The notes under the pieces were generated by a model. It was not told where the DNA came from. It searched no databases and worked only from the letters and a program-made list of their open reading frames with translations. The position numbers and the translations under genes were made by a program. A stretch of DNA of 64,000 nt, from assembly GCA_008477525.1 (NCBI GenBank), contig SPDT01000007.1:2108001-2172000 (forward strand), written 5' to 3'. This document shows positions 6,482 through 37,600 of the stretch, piece by piece. The DNA comes from Hypomyces perniciosus. Taxonomy: Eukaryota; Ascomycota; Sordariomycetes; Hypocreales; Hypocreaceae. Within the stretch, counting starts at the first letter, position 1, and the number at the start of each line of letters is the position of its first letter.

Positions 6482-8230
6482 TCATACCTCCTCGCTCGTG
6501 TCTCTGCCCAAAATGGTCCTCCTGACAACAGCCTCCGACCGCTTCTCCAGCGACTTCTTGACGGGGTTCGGGGCCTCAAAGACCTCGTTCATCTCCTCAA
6601 GAGTGCGGCCCTTGGTCTCAACAAAGAAGAAGTAGATGATGAAGAACTCAACCAAATCCCAAGCGATAAAAACCAGATAGTAGTAGTATCCGATCTGGGC
6701 AATGGCCACACCACTGGTGTACTGGCCCAAGATTGACGCAGCAGATCCGACAACCTGTCCAATGGCGGTTCCCTTGGCACGCGACTCGGTGGGGAGGGTC
6801 TCGGCGATGTAAAAGGGGAGGAGTGGCACGAGGCAGAAAGAGAAGATGACGCTGAAGAGGTAAATGAAGAAGATACCAGCGTAGCCGGCGGACTTGTTGG
6901 CGTCCACTACGGAAAGCTTCGTGCAGCCAGTGACGATGGCCAAGCAGAAGCACATACCAAGCACACCACTCATAAGGAACGGACGACGGCCGACCTTGTC
7001 AAGGAGTATGGCTCCGAAAATGGCCGCGAACCATGAAACGACAGGGTTGAGCGCGTTCATGAGCAGCTGGGTGTGTGGATCCTCGATACCAATCTGCTGG
7101 ACAATGACTGGGAAATAGTAGCTGACGAGGGCATTGCCAGAGTACTGTCCGAACCAGGCCATGCCGACGACGCAAATCATACGACGGCGAGCAGAGTGCG
7201 TGTTGAACAGATCCCGGTAGTCCCACCAGCGCTTATCTGAGCCCTCGGTGTTGATGCGGGCGTCCATTTCAGCCATCTGCAAACGGACAAAGGGGTTGTC
7301 CCGAGAGCCTTCACCGTGAAGCTCCGCAAGAACATTCTCAGCCTCCTCGCGACGACCATGGGCAACGAGCCAGCGAGGAGTCTCGGGGCAGAACAAGATA
7401 CCGGCGCCCACAACACCGGAGCTGACCATCTGAAGCCAGAGTGGGATGCGGAAAGACCCATCGCCGCTGAGGAAAGCCGTGCCGTATGTGACCCAACTGG
7501 CGATGATGGATCCAACGAAGTAGTTGGTCTGCATAAGACCGGAGAGAGGGCCTCGCCAGTGTGGGTGAGCCATTTCGGCGACGAAGGTCGGGGCAGAGAC
7601 GTTGATGAAGCCTTGGCCGAAACCGCAAAGGAAACGACCGCCAAGGAACATGCCCTGGGAGATGGCAGGGGCCTGGATGCATGTTCCAATGATGACGAAG
7701 ATGCATCCAGTGAAGATTCCCCATCGTCGGCCGAAGTTATCGTTGATGGGACCAGCGAAGGGCAGAGCGCAGAGACTGCCGATGTTGAAGATGGCAAACA
7801 CCAATCCGGTGGCGGAACCAGCTGACTCTCTGATATCGCAATTGAGTTAGAAAAATTGCAAAATGGTTGCATTGGATATTGTTTTTTCACTTACAGTCCA
7901 AAGAAGTTTTGATATTGTGGCTGTTGGATACATATCAGTAATCATGTCTTACAGGGGGAGAGAGTTTCGGTCTTATCGTACCATTGCATTAATGGCACCC
8001 ATGAGAGAGCCATCGTAACCTTGCAGAACAATGCAAAGATAACCGAGCAGTAGAATGCCATACAGTTTGAACATGCGCCTGGTCCAGAGTTGCGGCTCGG
8101 CCTCCTCTGCCAGATGCGAGATATCGATCGCCGCAGCAACGTGGGACTTCTCATTGCTGTCGGTACGCTCAGCTTTCTCCGTATGGAGGCCAGCGTCCGC
8201 CATCTTTTCGTTGTCTGAATGGGTAGACAT
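6482..8230 (-). CDS. MFS sugar (hexose/lactose-permease type) transporter
   Basis: Three-exon gene, exons 7982-8230, 7895-7920 and 6482-7829, joined in frame to give about 540 residues, the usual size for fungal sugar porters. The introns are gtacga...caacag and gtaagt...atcag. Sugar-porter signatures are present: [13 protein letters not shown] in the first membrane segment, FGRRWG, the PETPRWL motif after the sixth helix, [16 protein letters not shown], and [11 protein letters not shown] at the C-terminus. About twelve hydrophobic segments fit a plasma-membrane proton symporter. A second in-frame ATG lies three codons upstream at 8239. It is divergent from the aldehyde dehydrogenase at 8969 and tail-to-tail with the zinc-cluster regulator. 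The substrate cannot be read from sequence; a mono- or disaccharide or uronate linked to the neighbouring GH88 enzyme is an inference. Confidence 0.92.
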
Positions 8231-17230: not shown

Positions 17231-17493
17231 CTAGTACTGGTTGATCTCCTTGCATCGTGTTTTGCTGTTTTGCTGTTTTATCTGAATCTTGAAGAATCTA
17301 AGGCAAATTGAGGAGATTCACAAGTCGACATCATACATAGAAGGACCTAGTCCATATGAAAGTTGATGCGTACATCATCCCCATCGAAGACTTGCAGAAT
17401 ACAGTTTGTAACAAAACATAAGAAAAATCCGAACAAGTTCTCAAAGGCCGTACCACCTCTAATGTTCCTGCTGTTCTTTAAATGGCTTGATAC
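17231..17493. other. Short convergent intergenic region
   Basis: Tail-to-tail space between the HExxH gene and the UstYa gene. It is AT-rich and contains nothing recognisable beyond presumed 3' ends. Confidence 0.4.
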
Positions 17494-18564
17494 TCATTCC
17501 ATGTGGGAATGATGGACCTTGGCGTGCGACTGGTTAGCGGTAGACACCGTATGTATTTTATAAACCTTACCAAATTTTGGATGAACAATATAGTTCTCTT
17601 GGAAAACATCGACCGAATTATCTCGAGAGTATTCCATCACTTTCTTGAAATCCACGCATTGATGTGGTGCAGTCTGATTAACAATTGGCAGCGCGTTGAT
17701 ATCAGTCCACATGTGAGTGATGATGGAAACGTCACCACGACATGTCGCACCCATTCGAAGAACTTCGAGACAATGTTCTGAAAAATCCTGATCAGTTATT
17801 CAACTCCAAATCAATCGTCTGATTCATATTTGGGATGAACCATACTATTGTGCTCGCGATTTGTTTTCAGCTCCTTCTCTGTAGCATTCGGGTGGTAGTA
17901 CTCTGGGGTGAGAGTCTGATAAAGACGTTTCTGGCAAGTTTGTTGGAAAATAGAATTTTTATATAATTTTTAATTGACTTACGACGCAATGCAGTTCGTG
18001 AAATACGTTCAGCATCCCAAGATACCCACCATCTGACAACTTGACTGCTTCATGCTCACGACCCCAACGCCTCACCCACTCGTCGGACACTCTGATGTTA
18101 TTATCTATCCAAATACGTTAGTATAATAGCATAAATGAAACTTGGAGAAAGACAGACATTGTAGTAAATCCTTCCATGCTTGATCAAGTTCCGGTCTCGG
18201 CTCTCCTGTATATATGCCATGTGGCGGTCCTTGAATTGGGAAAACCTCGAGATGCATTTCTTCGCCCACGATATTTGCTGGAGCTATGAATCTCTTCAAT
18301 TTTATGAAAGGTAACAGGCTTTCTGTACGACTTACAATCCACCAGCCCGAACACCGACCCAGTCTGTCTGCCGCGTCGCATCGAGACGACGAACACAGTA
18401 GTGTACATCGCAATGAGTATAACATGAATGAGCCATGCTTTTGACAGGCTTGGTGATGATTGTGTTTCGATTTGGTCTTCCAGCTCGCCATGAACATTTT
18501 CCACAGTCAAAGTCAATCCCTCATCTGAACACACAGGCACGTAGCCCTTCTCTACCCGAGCCAT
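17494..18564 (-). CDS. UstYa-family (DUF3328) oxidase, RiPP tailoring
   Basis: Five exons (18336-18564, 18158-18283, 17983-18104, 17846-17930, 17494-17777) join in frame to give 281 residues, a normal UstYa size. A single membrane anchor lies at about residues 43-61 (WLIHVILIAMYTTVFVV) after a short N-terminal segment. The two family-defining HxxHC motifs are intact: HELHC at 154-158 in GMLNVFHELHCV, and HNKHC at 186-190 in REHNKHCLEVLRMG. The family signature EYYHPNAT lies between them. Known UstYa proteins (ustiloxin, phomopsin, asperipin and cyclochlorotine pathways) catalyse oxidative cyclisation or other oxidation of peptides. The start is the first ATG of the exon-1 frame. The gene is divergent from the repeat precursor gene at 19249, which is the expected partner. 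Family assignment is firm; the reaction is inferred. Confidence 0.9.
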
Positions 18565-19248
18565 CTTCTCAAGGGGCGCAAATGGGCAGAGGACAGCAAC
18601 AGCTACCACAAGAACAGAGAATTTGCCAGAAATATGACTACCACTACGATACTTGGGTAAAATCAACCTTGAAATGGTATCAAGAGGCAAGTCGGAATCA
18701 AGAATTCACCCCACCACAAACTCCCCCGTCTCATTGACAAAAGAGCAAACTCGATGATGGGGTATCCGTAAAGAGCTGACAGCCCTCAAGTCTCTACTTG
18801 GAAGGTGATTTCTTTCCTCATGTATCACGTATGCATGTCGCCTTGGGTTCGGGAATACAGACGCCCGAGCGGCTGAGAGCAATGCATGCGGAGAAGGCCA
18901 TGCATTTTATATACAGACAAGACATTGTGTGCCTTCAGTTCTTGGCATCGTCTGATAGCTGAGCACACCTAACCTACCAAGTCTTCTTCCGTGCAACCCA
19001 CCAATTGTTTATCGGCTAAAAAGTATGGTCTCCTTGAACAAAAGTTCCTGCAGCCAAGTGAATGCTGCTCGATATACTTCTCCGTCGCCAACCGATCAAA
19101 ATCTACAATCACTGGGATATTTGACGCCCAGCCCATGCGGTGCGAGCGTAACTTGAAGTATATGAATGTCTACTTTTCCTGCCTATGCGTCTTGTATCTA
19201 GTAGTTGGCATATGTCTCGAGAAACCAGACTTTAATACTCGTCGCGCA
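18565..19248. promoter_or_regulatory. Divergent promoter between UstYa gene and RiPP precursor
   Basis: About 680 bases lie between the two start codons, consistent with a shared bidirectional promoter. TATA-like elements are seen at 18905-18915 (TTTTATATACA) and near 19158 (AGTATATGAAT). No zinc-cluster palindrome could be assigned with confidence. Confidence 0.45.
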
Positions 19249-19483
19249 ATGAAGGTCGCCATCATCCTCGCCGCCCTGACGGCATGCGTTGCATCGCTGC
19301 CCCGAGGTAGATCAAAAACATTGAGAGAAATTGAGTCCATTTCCATACTAATACTTCATAGCCGAGAACAGCGCCGACGAATCGTACCTCCCACAAAAGA
19401 GGGCAGATGCGAGTGCGGACGAATCCTATCTTCCTCAGAAGCGGGCCGACACCAGCGCAGATGAGTCCTATCTTCCGCAGTAG
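19249..19483 (+). CDS. Kex2-processed repeat precursor peptide (dikaritin-like RiPP)
   Basis: Two exons, 19249-19306 and 19362-19483, encode 59 residues. The intron (19307-19361, gtagat...tactaatac...catag) has a good branch site, and splicing restores frame in phase 1. Residues 1-17 are a classical signal peptide (MKVAIILAALTACVASL). The rest is three tandem units, AENSADESYLPQKR, ADASADESYLPQKR and ADTSADESYLPQ, so each core is bounded by Lys-Arg Kex2 sites and the last ends at the stop. This is the layout of ustiloxin, phomopsin and asperipin precursors, in which Golgi kexin frees short repeats whose Tyr is cross-linked by UstYa enzymes. The core here (SADESYLPQ or a part of it) does not match any dikaritin core I know. 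The divergent UstYa gene supports the assignment. An upstream in-frame ATG would bury the signal peptide and is rejected. Confidence 0.9.
19362..19480 (+). repeat. Three tandem 42-nt coding repeats
   Basis: Units span 19362-19402 (first base supplied by exon 1), 19403-19444 and 19445-19480 (lacking the terminal Lys-Arg codons). The DESYLPQ portion is identical in protein but uses different synonymous codons in each copy (TAC CTC CCA CAA, TAT CTT CCT CAG, TAT CTT CCG CAG). This indicates maintenance by selection on the peptide rather than recent duplication. Confidence 0.92.
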
Positions 19484-26490: not shown

Positions 26491-27985
26491 TCAACTACTC
26501 TCTTCAAATTGGATAATTTCTTCGTAGCTGCCAACCCTCATCACTGTGCCGTCCTTCAGCCAGACTAAAACGTCCTTATTAGGCCTCATTCTCCCAGCTA
26601 TGGCATTCAAACGGTGAGCAACGATGATCACGGTGTGGCCAGGCTGAACGAACTCGCTTTCCACCACATCATAGATGACGAATTCGGTGGCTGAGTCAAG
26701 TGACAAAGTTGCTTCGTCCAGAAGAAGAATCAACTTGGGGTGGTGACCAGAGACTTCGGCGGACGCAGACAAAACATGTTTTTGAACAATCGCGCGCGCC
26801 ATAGCCATGAGCTGCAGTTACCCCATGGATAATGTTGACAACGACAAAAACTCACAATCTAGTGGAATTGATGGCGCACTATCAGACGTGACGCAAAGTA
26901 GATCCCAAACCCCGACCTTCACGAGCGCAGACAGAAGTACTTCGTCAGAGGCAGAAGAAGAAGGGTCTAAGTTAAAGTGGAAGGTCTCATGCGATGTCAA
27001 GAACGGAGCCTGTGCGATGGCGATAAAATACTGTTGACGAACGATGGAGCGAGGCGTATAAAGTAAGTCGTGTCCATCTACAATAATGGAACCAGTGCTT
27101 TCAGCGAGGCGTACGAAAGCCAGGATGACAGTGCTTTTTCCGCTCCCAGTTCTGCCCCAAAGAACAACTTTCTGACCAGCATGGATGTCAATATTCACGT
27201 TGTGCAGCAATATTGTTCGTCCCCCGTCGTGCTTTGCGTCCAAATTTGTTATCTAAACTTCGCCTTGAGTCGGCCACGAAGCATCGGGTGCAGCGTGGTC
27301 TTGAGCTTGGTCTTCTTGAGGCGTATGCAGCTCCACGTTTCCAAGTGGTGCAATGGCTTTAAGCGATACTTCAAGAGATGCCTAAGATTCGACTAATCGA
27401 ACCAAGGTCGTATTGGCAACCAGAATCGGGTTCAATGTTGCGCCCATGCCATCACCAGTGGTCGTTCCTCTCCACCTAACAGCAATGGCAATGAGACCAA
27501 TCGCAATTCCACTAACAATCAAGTTGAGAACCAGATTAAGCCATCACTGGAGGCACACAAGTGAATAATATGGCCGAAGCGAGTCGTCGAGATTTTCAGG
27601 CTCTTCCTCTCGGCGGCGAAAGTCCAACCGAACGCGCGGATCGTCACAACGCCTTCGACAGTTTCAAGGAACCATAAGTAAACCACCGATTGAGATTCAA
27701 GTTCAAGAACTCGAAACTGACGTGAGGTCCGAAGATATATCTTCTGCACGAAGTAAACAGTGATGATGCATATAGGCAACGAGACCGCGAGCCATTTTTG
27801 AACCCCCATTATTAGCAGCAATTGCATCAACATCTTGAAGATTTCTGGGTACTAAGTCAGCTGTGCCAAGGTGGGAAAGTATGCGACTTGAGCTACGGGT
27901 GCAGAGCACCGATAAAGTAGGCGGCAGCTGCCTATCCACGAGAGAGATGTCATGGCTGAACCTGTATTCTCATTAGATATAATTA
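26491..27985 (-). pseudogene. Remnant of an ABCC (MRP-type) ABC transporter
   Basis: Fragments of the second half of an ABCC multidrug-resistance transporter lie in order on the minus strand. From the 5' side they are a TMD2 piece (RFSHDISLVDRQLPP and the following helix VAVSLPICIITVYFVQKIYL-like region, 27519-27960), then SGIAIGLIAIAVRWRG near 27480, then NBD2 with Walker A GRTGSGKST (about 27140), the Q-loop AIAQAPF, Walker B LILLLDEATLSLD (about 26725) and the switch VIIVAHRL. In-frame stops interrupt it, for example after LVRLVES near 27395 and before the NBD near 27255, and the ABC signature region is broken near 26815. The N-terminal half (TMD1-NBD1) is absent. It therefore cannot make a transporter. 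Confidence 0.75.
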
Positions 27986-34686: not shown

Positions 34687-37600
34687 TTACTCGCCATCCC
34701 AAGTAACCTTCATCGTGGCGGGGAACGGCGAGATCATTCCCCAGTCCTCCGTCAAGAAAACAGAGTGGCCACCAGTTTGAGGAACCTTCCTCAGCTCTCC
34801 CTGGGGTCCAGCGGCCCTCTTCAAGCCCTTCCTCTTGAACACGGCCCTGAATAGCTCGACCAATGCTACTTGGCTGACCTCTTTGCCAATTGTGGTGTGG
34901 GTGCCAGCACCGAACTGGATATAGGCATCCAGAGGGCGTCGAGGGTCAATCTTTTCGGGGTTGGGGAAGTGAGCAGGATCTCGGGCTGTCGAAACCATGT
35001 TGACGAAGACAAGATCACCCCGGTTAATGTTGACCTTGCGACCATCATCCTCGGCCACGATATCGGCGGAGTCGGCTACGTGGCACAGGCCAAACGTGCC
35101 AGCCATGCGAACACCCTCCAAAGCATATCCGAGGAGCAATGAATCACTCTCATCGCTAGATTCTAATGCAAGGCGGTGGAGCTCTTCCACATATTGTTCA
35201 CCTTCAGTCGACAGGTACCAATCGAGTGCTTGAGCGAACTGTTAAAGTCACCATGTTAGCATCATTATACAGTGATTATGGATTCAAAGGATGAAGGTTC
35301 CTTACCAGTCGACCCTGACTTGGTACAAGCGCTGCGGCAGCAGGAAGAATATAGCCCCAAGCAATGTCATGAGCATTCACTCCAACGTTGGACAGACCCT
35401 TCACCATCTCTACACCGCGGGAAGAGAGAACATCGTTCTTAGAATTGCCCGTAAAGAGTCGCAATCCGAGTGACTTCGTGTACTTGACAGTAGTCTCAAT
35501 AGACGAGCCCAACACCTGCGCAAGCTCCTTAGTCTTCTGTCGAAGTGCAAACGACCCGACAGGATCAATGTCCAAGAAGATACACGTGAAGATGGCAGCC
35601 AAGGTAGTGTACAACTCCTGCTCGGAAAACACTCCCTTCGGGTTATCTTTCGTCTTCAAGGGAATGTTGAAAACCTGAGCAACGAAGCGGGCGTGCGCAA
35701 TGTTGCCAATGTCGCGCACCACATCGACATACGACTTGCCCATAATCTCGTACGACTTCTCCACCAGTAGCTTCTCTGCTGTCTTGGCATAGAATGCCTT
35801 GACATGCTTCTTCCAGTCATCCTTGTACAAGTGTGACTCCATGGTCTTGCGATCATTGGGATGCATGTACCGGCCGGTCTGGCCAGCAAGGATCTCAAGG
35901 CCCTCCTGCCACATAGCACGATACTTGTCTGCGTTCGTCAGGATGTGCTTTGCCCCTCCATACGAGGTAACTTCAACGTGAGGAGAAGTGTACCTAGGCC
36001 GGTCAAAGTTAAAGAGTCCCACTCGGTTCAGGCTGGTTAAGATCTGGCGGTTCTCAGAAGGGATGACCATAGGGTAGTGAGCGTACACTGAGTTGTACTT
36101 GAAGTGACGGGGGAATGCGCGAATGAAAAGCTTGTAGAATACGCAGCCGTGGTTAACAGAGAGGTCGTAGTCAACCTCCTTGTAACCCCAGTTGGTGAGA
36201 TATCCGGGGTTGTAGTCAGTAGTATAGTGTCTATCGCCTCGGACGAGGGCCACAGCATCGGACAACACGACACGAGAGATGGTGTAGGTGGGTGTAATAC
36301 CAACACCAGGAACCATAGGCGTCTTGGCCTCCTCGGCGACAATGCCAGGATATAGCTCCACGTAATCGGGGTGTTGGTATAGGTTGCGCAGCGCATCCGC
36401 GACCTCGGGATCAGAGTTGAGTTCTTCAAAGGTTTCATATGCCTTGAGACCGAAGTGTTTGCGGAACTCGTTGAGGCCCACCAGATGCCACTTCCTGCCA
36501 CGGATAATGCCCAGCATTTCGACGGGCTTCATGATGCGCGGGACATTGCGAGCGCCGAAGGAGCCTCCGGGCTGCTCAATGGCGGTTGAAATGCAGTTGA
36601 CAAGATCGTCATCATCGAAACGCCCGTCAGGGCCACGAGCGAATCCACCAAATACGTAGTCAGCAGGGTCCTTGGGTAAAGACATAGCAAACTTCTTGAT
36701 GGCAACAATCAACATGCGCAAATCCATAGTGCCGTAGTTCTCTCCCAGGAGATCGTCATAGAAATCACGAATCCACTCATCATCCATCTCTGAGATGCAA
36801 GAGTGCCAACGGTAGCAGAGATTAAACTCGGCAGAGACACTGTTTCCGACACCTCTATCAGAACCCTTAGCGGTCCCAACAGCCACACCTGACTCCTGTC
36901 GCGGATCCAGGGTCCATTCTGTATCAACTCTGTTCAGGTTGATGATATTCCGCACGTAATCAATGAGGGTGATGTTGATGTACAAACCAGAGGTCACCAG
37001 ACGAGCCGTCTGGAAGAGCTCCTCGTCGTACTTCTTCCATGCTGCGGTCGCCGCATCGCTGTCCAGATTAGGCGCTGGCTTGGCGAACCGATTTCCCTCA
37101 TTAATGGCAGCCAGATTCGCCGCCACATGGTTGTGGACGCGGTTGAACATAATGAGTATAACACAAACACCAGGAGGCATACCCAAGAGTCGCTTATCTG
37201 CAAAGGTGTCAGGCTTCAGCATGCCATCCTTGAACGTTCGAATGGAGTCGCGAGCCTCTTTGCCGTGACCATACAGAGGGGCGAGATCAAGGTAGGATGA
37301 AGAATCGTTGATATTCGGGTCTCGCTCGTTGGTCCAGAAAAGATCTAAAATCTGTGAGTCAAGCTCCAGTGCTTCAGCTGAGATCAGTAAATACCGTGGA
37401 TGATAATGGTGGCCCAATACCACAGAATACTGGAGACATTGTTGGGGCTCTTCTTGAACACATTTCTGGCCATTATAGATTCAAAGACAGCCTCAGGGTC
37501 CGGGAGAGCCCCTATTGGCAACACTCTGGGCTGACATGACCGCGAATATGGTGTACCAGCAGCACCAAGCTTTGGCATTATTGGATTCTACAGGGATTGT

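What the first reader, a model, noticed from the sequence alone, without database searches (positions are those of the whole stretch)
17494..19483. Apparently undescribed dikaritin-like RiPP locus: UstYa gene divergent from a Kex2-repeat precursor
Seen in sequence: a spliced 59-residue product with a signal peptide and three ADxSADESYLPQ units separated by Lys-Arg, 685 bases from a UstYa protein with both HxxHC motifs. Known: UstYa proteins oxidatively cyclise Kex2-released Tyr-containing cores (ustiloxin, phomopsin, asperipin families). Inference: the Tyr in ESYLPQ is cross-linked to a neighbouring residue, giving a new macrocyclic peptide. This core does not match any I can recall. The minimal two-gene form, without an evident tyrosinase or methyltransferase, is also unusual.
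Basis: partly seen in the sequence, partly recalled or inferred. Interest (0 to 1): 0.92.

Follow-up and report, generated by a model that had tools for sequence, protein, structure and literature searches.

The report
Fungal repeat-peptide gene beside cyclase gene
A fungus carries a small gene for a secreted protein made of three near-identical peptide units, next to a gene for a copper-enzyme relative of the kind that modifies such peptides; relatives of both occur in other fungi, so this looks like an undescribed member of a known family of fungal peptide natural products.

Summary
A two-exon gene (19249-19306, 19362-19483) encodes 59 residues: a signal peptide, then three 12-residue units ending SADESYLPQ, joined by Lys-Arg. 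It lies 684 bases from a divergent UstYa/DUF3328 gene with both HxxHC motifs, corrected here to six exons, 18564-17459, 275 aa. It is not chance: the 9 variable columns of the 27-base core all fall at third codon positions, without amino-acid change.

The unit is conserved: relatives with ADESY(L/D)P(M/Q) units occur in Colletotrichum lupini, C. incanum (misnamed 'internalin') and three proteins without species names. C. incanum also has a UstYa relative.

Most likely this is a UstYa-modified Kex2-repeat peptide, a new member of the dikaritin/ust-RiPS kind. The modification itself (crosslink, desaturation or hydroxylation; on Tyr, Pro or Ser) is inferred, not shown. 'Unusual two-gene form' is not supported: asperipin-2a has one UstYa and no tyrosinase, and a survey found DUF3328 genes most often directly beside repeat precursors. 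I found no text on this core among the papers held; supplements and figures were not searchable.

The parts
19249..19306 (+). Precursor exon 1: signal peptide MKVAIILAALTACVASLPR (last codon split)
   Evidence: first 18 residues identical to a stretch of C. incanum P0049; no signal-peptide predictor was run
19307..19361 (+). Precursor intron, 55 bases, GTAGAT...CTAAT...TAG
   Evidence: not tested by RNA
19362..19483 (+). Precursor exon 2: three units AENSADESYLPQ, ADASADESYLPQ, ADTSADESYLPQ joined by KR, stop right after the last Q
   Evidence: relatives
17459..18564 (-). UstYa/DUF3328 gene, 275 aa; exons 18564-18336, 18283-18158, 18104-17983, 17930-17846, 17777-17571, 17517-17459; HELHC at residue 154, HNKHC at 186
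   Evidence: Pfam PF11807 E 8e-45 (on the 281-aa model)
18565..19248 (.). Shared upstream region of the two divergent genes, 684 bases
   Evidence: From the two start codons; only short repeats, judged chance-like

Best explanation
This is a small ribosomal-peptide (RiPP) locus of the dikaritin/ust-RiPS kind. The 59-residue precursor enters the secretory pathway by its signal peptide. Kex2 cuts after Lys-Arg, the basic residues are trimmed off, and three near-identical dodecapeptides ending -SADESYLPQ are released. The membrane-anchored UstYa protein, with its two HxxHC motifs holding copper in the lumen, oxidises the conserved ESY(L/D)P(M/Q) part, most likely by joining the Tyr phenol to a nearby side chain in a small ring (loss of 2 H). 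The acidic ADE stretch probably serves for recognition and is removed by other proteases. Shown here: both genes, their arrangement, selection on the unit, conservation of the unit in relatives, conservation of the copper motifs. Inferred from the family: Kex2 release, copper chemistry, the fact of a modification. The exact bond is a guess: by analogy with ustiloxin and phomopsin (Y-x-I-x, Tyr bonded to the third residue), the invariant Pro at the third place, or the invariant Ser before Tyr, is a likelier partner than the variable L/D.
For: Silent-only divergence of the cores. Relatives of the precursor with the same unit, 5 at E 4.3e-30 to 5.6e-12; A, D, E, S, Y and P do not vary in 24 ADESY units counted (the units were picked by the string ADESY, so only the Pro and the flanks are a free count; one C. 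lupini unit reading SADEWVLL was not counted). UstYa with both motifs; H154, H157, C158, H189, C190 invariant and H186 at least 90% in 35 sequences. C. incanum has both a UstYa relative (P0004) and a precursor relative (P0049). CctR, another DUF3328 protein, binds two coppers through the motif and is membrane-anchored; the cyclase AprY is copper- and oxygen-dependent (PMC12435403, passages). 65.6% of repeats of precursors beside DUF3328 genes contain Tyr, against 38.2% of others (PMC7329392, section 7).
Against: No transcript or product. Whether UstYa and precursor are neighbours in Colletotrichum could not be checked. UstYa relatives were found in many genomes (46 proteins) but precursor relatives only in 2 named species, perhaps because such genes are rarely annotated. 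8 of 24 units in the precursors are followed by (K/R)xR rather than KR or RR and 1 by RH, so plain Kex2 cutting does not explain every junction in relatives. DUF3328 enzymes are not confined to RiPPs (PMC12048977, section 22).
Confidence: 0.74

Rival explanations
1. The peptide is modified by UstYa but not crosslinked: UstYa desaturates, hydroxylates or halogenates the core, for example at the invariant Pro.
For: A phomopsin DUF3328 protein, PhomYe, is credited with dehydro-Pro (PMC10880069, passages); CctR is a hydroxylase (PMC12435403); the Pro is present in all 24 units counted.
Against: The Tyr is as constant as the Pro, and Tyr is enriched in DUF3328-linked precursors (PMC7329392). Sequence alone cannot decide.
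Confidence: 0.3
2. The repeat protein releases unmodified linear peptides that act as signals, and the UstYa beside it acts on something else.
For: Of 7878 Kex2-repeat proteins 78% have no DUF3328 gene near them (from PMC7329392); DUF3328 proteins also serve polyketide and nonribosomal pathways (PMC12048977).
Against: The pair share a 684-base divergent upstream region, and this is the only UstYa match in the window and the only Kex2-type repeat found in it. The UstYa and the precursor have both kept relatives in C. incanum.
Confidence: 0.15
3. It is an alpha-type mating pheromone precursor.
For: Signal peptide plus repeats joined by KR.
Against: The units have no Trp or Cys and AD, not XA or XP, follows KR (pheromone features from PMC6339444, passages); all but three pheromone-type precursors in the survey lack DUF3328 neighbours (PMC7329392).
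Confidence: 0.02
4. The repeat frame is a chance reading of non-coding DNA.
For: No RNA evidence; the repeat frame is open for only 43 codons; no hit for the short query.
Against: Silent-only core divergence, no array at DNA level, a relative at E 4.3e-30, signal peptide start identical over 18 residues to that of C. incanum.
Confidence: 0.01

Closest known systems
Asperipin-2a pathway of Aspergillus flavus (aprA, aprY, aprR, aprT)
   Same: Kex2-repeat precursor with Tyr in the core and a single UstYa-family protein; no tyrosinase or methyltransferase (PMC6514808, passages)
   Different: Core FYYTGY, bicyclic product; the cluster also has a reductase and a transporter. I identified no such partners here, but only 18 chosen reading frames of the window were scanned
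Ustiloxins and phomopsins (dikaritins in the strict sense)
   Same: Signal peptide, repeated units cut at KR, acidic residues before the Tyr of the core, UstYa-family protein with the double HxxHC motif (PMC6514808, PMC7329392, passages)
   Different: Cores YAIG/YVIG and YVIP; 2 and 5 DUF3328 genes; tyrosinase and methyltransferase. Here the core is (S)Y(L/D)P(M/Q), one UstYa, and no tyrosinase match on the contig
Epichloecyclins (gigA, Epichloe)
   Same: Few repeats (four), KR sites, oxidative cyclisation on Tyr (PMC6514808, passages)
   Different: Seven-residue ring and methylated Lys; the sequences were not compared here
Kex2-processed repeat proteins (KEPs) with a DUF3328 neighbour, 1758 of 7878 in 1461 strains (PMC7329392)
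   Same: Architecture and gene order; DUF3328 most often directly next to the KEP gene (section 7)
   Different: Whether this unit is one of the survey's 838 types is unknown; its tables are supplements that I could not open

Membership tests
Dikaritins, broad sense (repeat precursor plus DUF3328; PMC12048977, PMC9632046) | Gene for a DUF3328/UstYa protein with two HxxHC motifs | tested here: met
   Pfam E 8e-45; HELHC 154, HNKHC 186; conserved in 35 sequences
Dikaritins, broad sense (repeat precursor plus DUF3328; PMC12048977, PMC9632046) | Nearby precursor with signal peptide and tandem repeats of at least 10 residues separated by kexin sites | tested here: met
   Three 12-residue units joined by KR, 684 bases away. 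The signal peptide is judged by eye and by relatives, not by a predictor
Dikaritins, broad sense (repeat precursor plus DUF3328; PMC12048977, PMC9632046) | A peptide product oxidised by the DUF3328 protein | not testable with these tools
   Needs mass spectrometry and a deletion strain
Dikaritins, strict five-gene definition (as cited in PMC12048977) | Tyrosinase gene in the cluster | tested here: not met
   No PF00264 match on contig C4; 4 matched pieces, on C22 and C16 only (exon-by-exon search)
Dikaritins, strict five-gene definition (as cited in PMC12048977) | Several DUF3328 genes in the cluster | tested here: not met
   One UstYa match in the window; the next on the contig is about 35 kb away
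Dikaritins, strict five-gene definition (as cited in PMC12048977) | Methyltransferase; transporter or peptidase | tested here: inconclusive
   None seen next to the pair in 18 chosen frames; an ABC-transporter piece at 26821-27252 and a sugar transporter at 6485-7846 lie farther off
Kex2-processed repeat proteins (KEPs) | Secreted protein with at least three similar units between KR, RR or KK sites | tested here: met
   Three units, KR between them
Alpha-type mating pheromone precursors | XA or XP dipeptides (STE13 signature) after KR, W/C-type peptide | tested here: not met
   AD follows KR; no W or C in the units (features from PMC6339444)

The most novel reading that the evidence does not exclude
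ADESY(L/D)P(M/Q) is the core of an undescribed, unusually well conserved fungal peptide shared by Colletotrichum and at least one lineage outside it. A lone UstYa makes a bond not seen before (Tyr to the invariant Pro or Ser), and the sequence is held fixed because the product is a signal or effector read by a partner, whereas dikaritin cores are usually very diverse.
Probability: 0.25. Interest if true: 0.62.

Novelty: new member of a known kind. Interest (0 to 1): 0.43.

Why it matters
It adds a core family, with named relatives, to a class whose cores are mostly unassigned. One UstYa and one short precursor are the only recognisable parts, so it could be a simple test bed for what a single DUF3328 copper enzyme does to a peptide. 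It also shows how such precursors are missed: the one here is short and split by an intron, its own-length search finds nothing, and its C. incanum relative is filed as 'internalin'.

Tried and rejected
A precursor search with its own length (59 aa) found nothing; only a search with a wider length range found the relatives, so the first alone would have led to a false 'unique' verdict. Chance frame: rejected by the codon test and the relatives. Alpha pheromone: rejected by unit composition. The UstYa match about 35 kb away (C4:2090388-2090630) as a partner: no Kex2-type repeat was found in the loci around it (L011, L012), so it is treated as separate. Tyrosinase partner: no match on the contig. 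A genome-wide MFS search scored only 9 of 334 candidates, so it says nothing about a nearby transporter. Scans of viral contigs with P0050 (11 pattern matches) and of bacterial and archaeal genomes with P0002 (18) confirmed no relative. Solved structures by sequence: one weak hit, E 0.046, judged chance. Fold search with the P0002 model: 83 matches at E <= 10, none at 0.001; the model is weak (mean pLDDT 65). The shared upstream region gave only short repeats.

Literature: SYLPQ occurs in 4 papers, unrelated by title, and ESYLPQ, DESYLPQ and SADESYLPQ in none. ADESY, DESYLP, SYLPM, SYDPM, YLPM or ESYLPM occur in 296 papers, of which 40 were listed; none of those is on fungal peptides by title, and a paper printing SADESYLPM should hold several of the terms and rank first. 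Four topic searches listed 8 of 8, 6 of 6, 20 of 21 and 10 of 11 papers; a fifth listed 25 of 3,633. Seen as passages: PMC6339444, PMC6514808, PMC7099791, PMC10880069, PMC12186524, PMC12435403, PMC9632046; PMC12048977 passages plus section 22; PMC7329392 passages plus sections 6 and 7. The rest were seen as listings only. Supplementary tables, where the repeat-protein surveys keep their sequences, could not be opened, so the unit may already stand in one.

Full report
WHAT IS THERE. The window belongs to a 44.0-Mb genome in 23 contigs (contig C4, 2108001-2172000); from the relatives of its genes it is evidently an ascomycete fungus, not named. On the plus strand a two-exon gene, 19249-19306 and 19362-19483, encodes 59 residues: MKVAIILAALTACVASLPR, then AENSADESYLPQ, ADASADESYLPQ and ADTSADESYLPQ joined by KR, ending right after the last Q. 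The 55-base intron has a CTAAT box about 10 bases before its end; of the six GT-AG pairs tried that join the same two frames, it alone keeps both the whole signal peptide and three full units. On the minus strand, 684 bases away, lies a UstYa gene (PF11807, E 8e-45). The protein is then 275 aa, with HELHC at 154 and HNKHC at 186.

IS IT MORE THAN CHANCE. The three units share SADESYLPQ exactly, yet their DNA varies in 9 of 27 core columns, all at third codon positions; over the full 36 bases 14 columns vary, 12 at third positions. Placing as many changes at random keeps the residues in a fraction of 1e-5, 0 and 2e-4 of 200,000 trials for the three pairs. Tandem Repeats Finder lists no array there. 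So the units are old copies held by selection on the peptide. For contrast, a second precursor in this genome (below) has six units that vary in 7 of 54 columns, 5 at third and 2 at first positions, a young or homogenised array. A six-frame scan for Kex2-type repeats over the window and 26 loci of the same genome found just these two places (loci L007, L009 and L010 repeat the window's own). Those loci were mostly chosen around UstYa genes, so the scan does not measure how often such repeats lie elsewhere.

RELATIVES OF THE PRECURSOR. A search with the 59-residue protein gave 12 candidates and no hit at E <= 10. Scoring the 40-residue repeat part while admitting longer proteins gave 5 hits among 437 candidates, E 4.3e-30 to 5.6e-12: P0047 Colletotrichum lupini (205 aa), P0049 C. 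incanum (167 aa, 'internalin protein'), and P0048, P0050 and P0051 without species names. All carry (S/N)ADESY(L/D)P(M/Q) units. In 24 ADESY units of five precursors (P0051 left out as a near-duplicate of P0050; a further C. lupini unit, SADEWVLL, not counted because units were picked by the string ADESY) the Pro two places after Tyr never varies; the residue after Tyr is L 19 times and D 5 times; the last is M 21 times, and Q only in this window's 3 units. Next come KR or RR in 12 of 24, (K/R)xR in 8, the protein's end in 3 and RH in 1. The first 18 residues of the window's signal peptide are identical to the stretch that precedes the repeats in C. incanum.

RELATIVES OF THE UstYa. 46 proteins scored E <= 0.001: Colletotrichum species at up to 71% identity, and Pochonia, Purpureocillium, Conoideocrella and Bisporella at 65-69%, then more distant ones. 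In an alignment of 35 (window plus 34 of the 46; 12 left out by me, among them short, fused and incomplete models) H154, H157, C158, H189 and C190 are invariant and H186 is at least 90%; C200, C228 are invariant too. In the tree of those 35, the window protein falls with 13 Colletotrichum rows, Purpureocillium, Pochonia, Conoideocrella and Bisporella in a well-supported group of 18 (96/97), outside the Colletotrichum rows; its exact place in the group is not well supported (86/82 with Bisporella). C. incanum has both a UstYa relative (P0004) and a precursor relative (P0049); whether they are neighbours I could not check. A model of the relative P0002 (the window's spliced protein was not accepted) is of modest quality (mean pLDDT 65, pTM 0.50): a helix at 38-65, then helices 152-167 and 178-201, which carry the two motifs. 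No solved relative was found by sequence (one weak hit, E 0.046) and none with confidence by fold.

HOW IT PROBABLY WORKS. In CctR, a DUF3328 hydroxylase, two coppers bind per monomer, alanine mutants of the HxxHC pair are inactive, and the enzyme is proposed to be anchored by one helix with its catalytic part in the lumen; the asperipin cyclase AprY is copper- and oxygen-dependent too (PMC12435403, passages). That fits this protein: N-terminal tail, one hydrophobic helix, both motifs, two further invariant Cys. The precursor would meet it in the secretory pathway, where Kex2 cuts at KR. In ustiloxin and phomopsin, ED stands before the Tyr of Y-x-I-x and the ring joins Tyr and Ile (PMC6514808, PMC7329392, PMC6339444, passages). 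Here DES stands before Y-(L/D)-P-(M/Q). If position 2 is again free and position 3 fixed, Pro, or the Ser before Tyr, is the likelier partner. That is analogy, not evidence. Desaturation of Pro, as credited to a phomopsin DUF3328 protein (PMC10880069, passages), or hydroxylation fits the sequence data as well.

HOW NEW IT IS. A 2020 survey of 1461 strains listed 7878 Kex2-repeat proteins, 1758 with DUF3328 neighbours; these are most frequent at the adjacent gene, and 65.6% of the repeats of those precursors contain Tyr (PMC7329392, section 7). Venturia inaequalis alone has nine such clusters (PMC9632046, passages). A single UstYa without tyrosinase is known from asperipin-2a (PMC6514808) and is called not uncommon (PMC12048977, passages). 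So the arrangement is the ordinary one. What seems new, as far as the searches show, is this core family and its spread; those searches cover open-licence main texts, not supplements, figures or most subscription papers. Under the strict five-gene definition of dikaritins the tyrosinase and several-DUF3328 tests are not met; under the broad definition both sequence features are met. The product is undemonstrated.

LIMITS.

Noticed in passing
L020:7223-7687 (minus strand; contig C23:5060001-5070000 of the same genome): A second Kex2-repeat precursor, 154 aa, six near-identical units NNYPKYGTAGDFEAVN... joined by KR, about 1.5 kb from a UstYa match at C23:5069181-5069687.
   Followed up: partly
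Genome G000, contigs C4, C7, C8, C23: 17 UstYa (PF11807) matches over the family's cut-off, many being exons of one gene, in several clusters; apart from the window's and the L020 precursor no repeat precursor was found in the loci fetched around them.
   Followed up: partly
P0049 (Colletotrichum incanum): The precursor relative is filed as 'internalin protein', a misleading name; the 57 residues before its signal peptide look like a wrongly called start.
   Followed up: no
26821-27252, minus strand: A piece of an ABC transporter (PF00005, E 9.3e-12), about 7 kb beyond the precursor; whether the gene is whole was not examined.
   Followed up: no
34690-37480, minus strand: Frames with animal-haem-peroxidase (PF03098) and P450 matches side by side, as in fungal fatty-acid oxygenases of the Ppo kind (name recalled; matches).
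   Followed up: no
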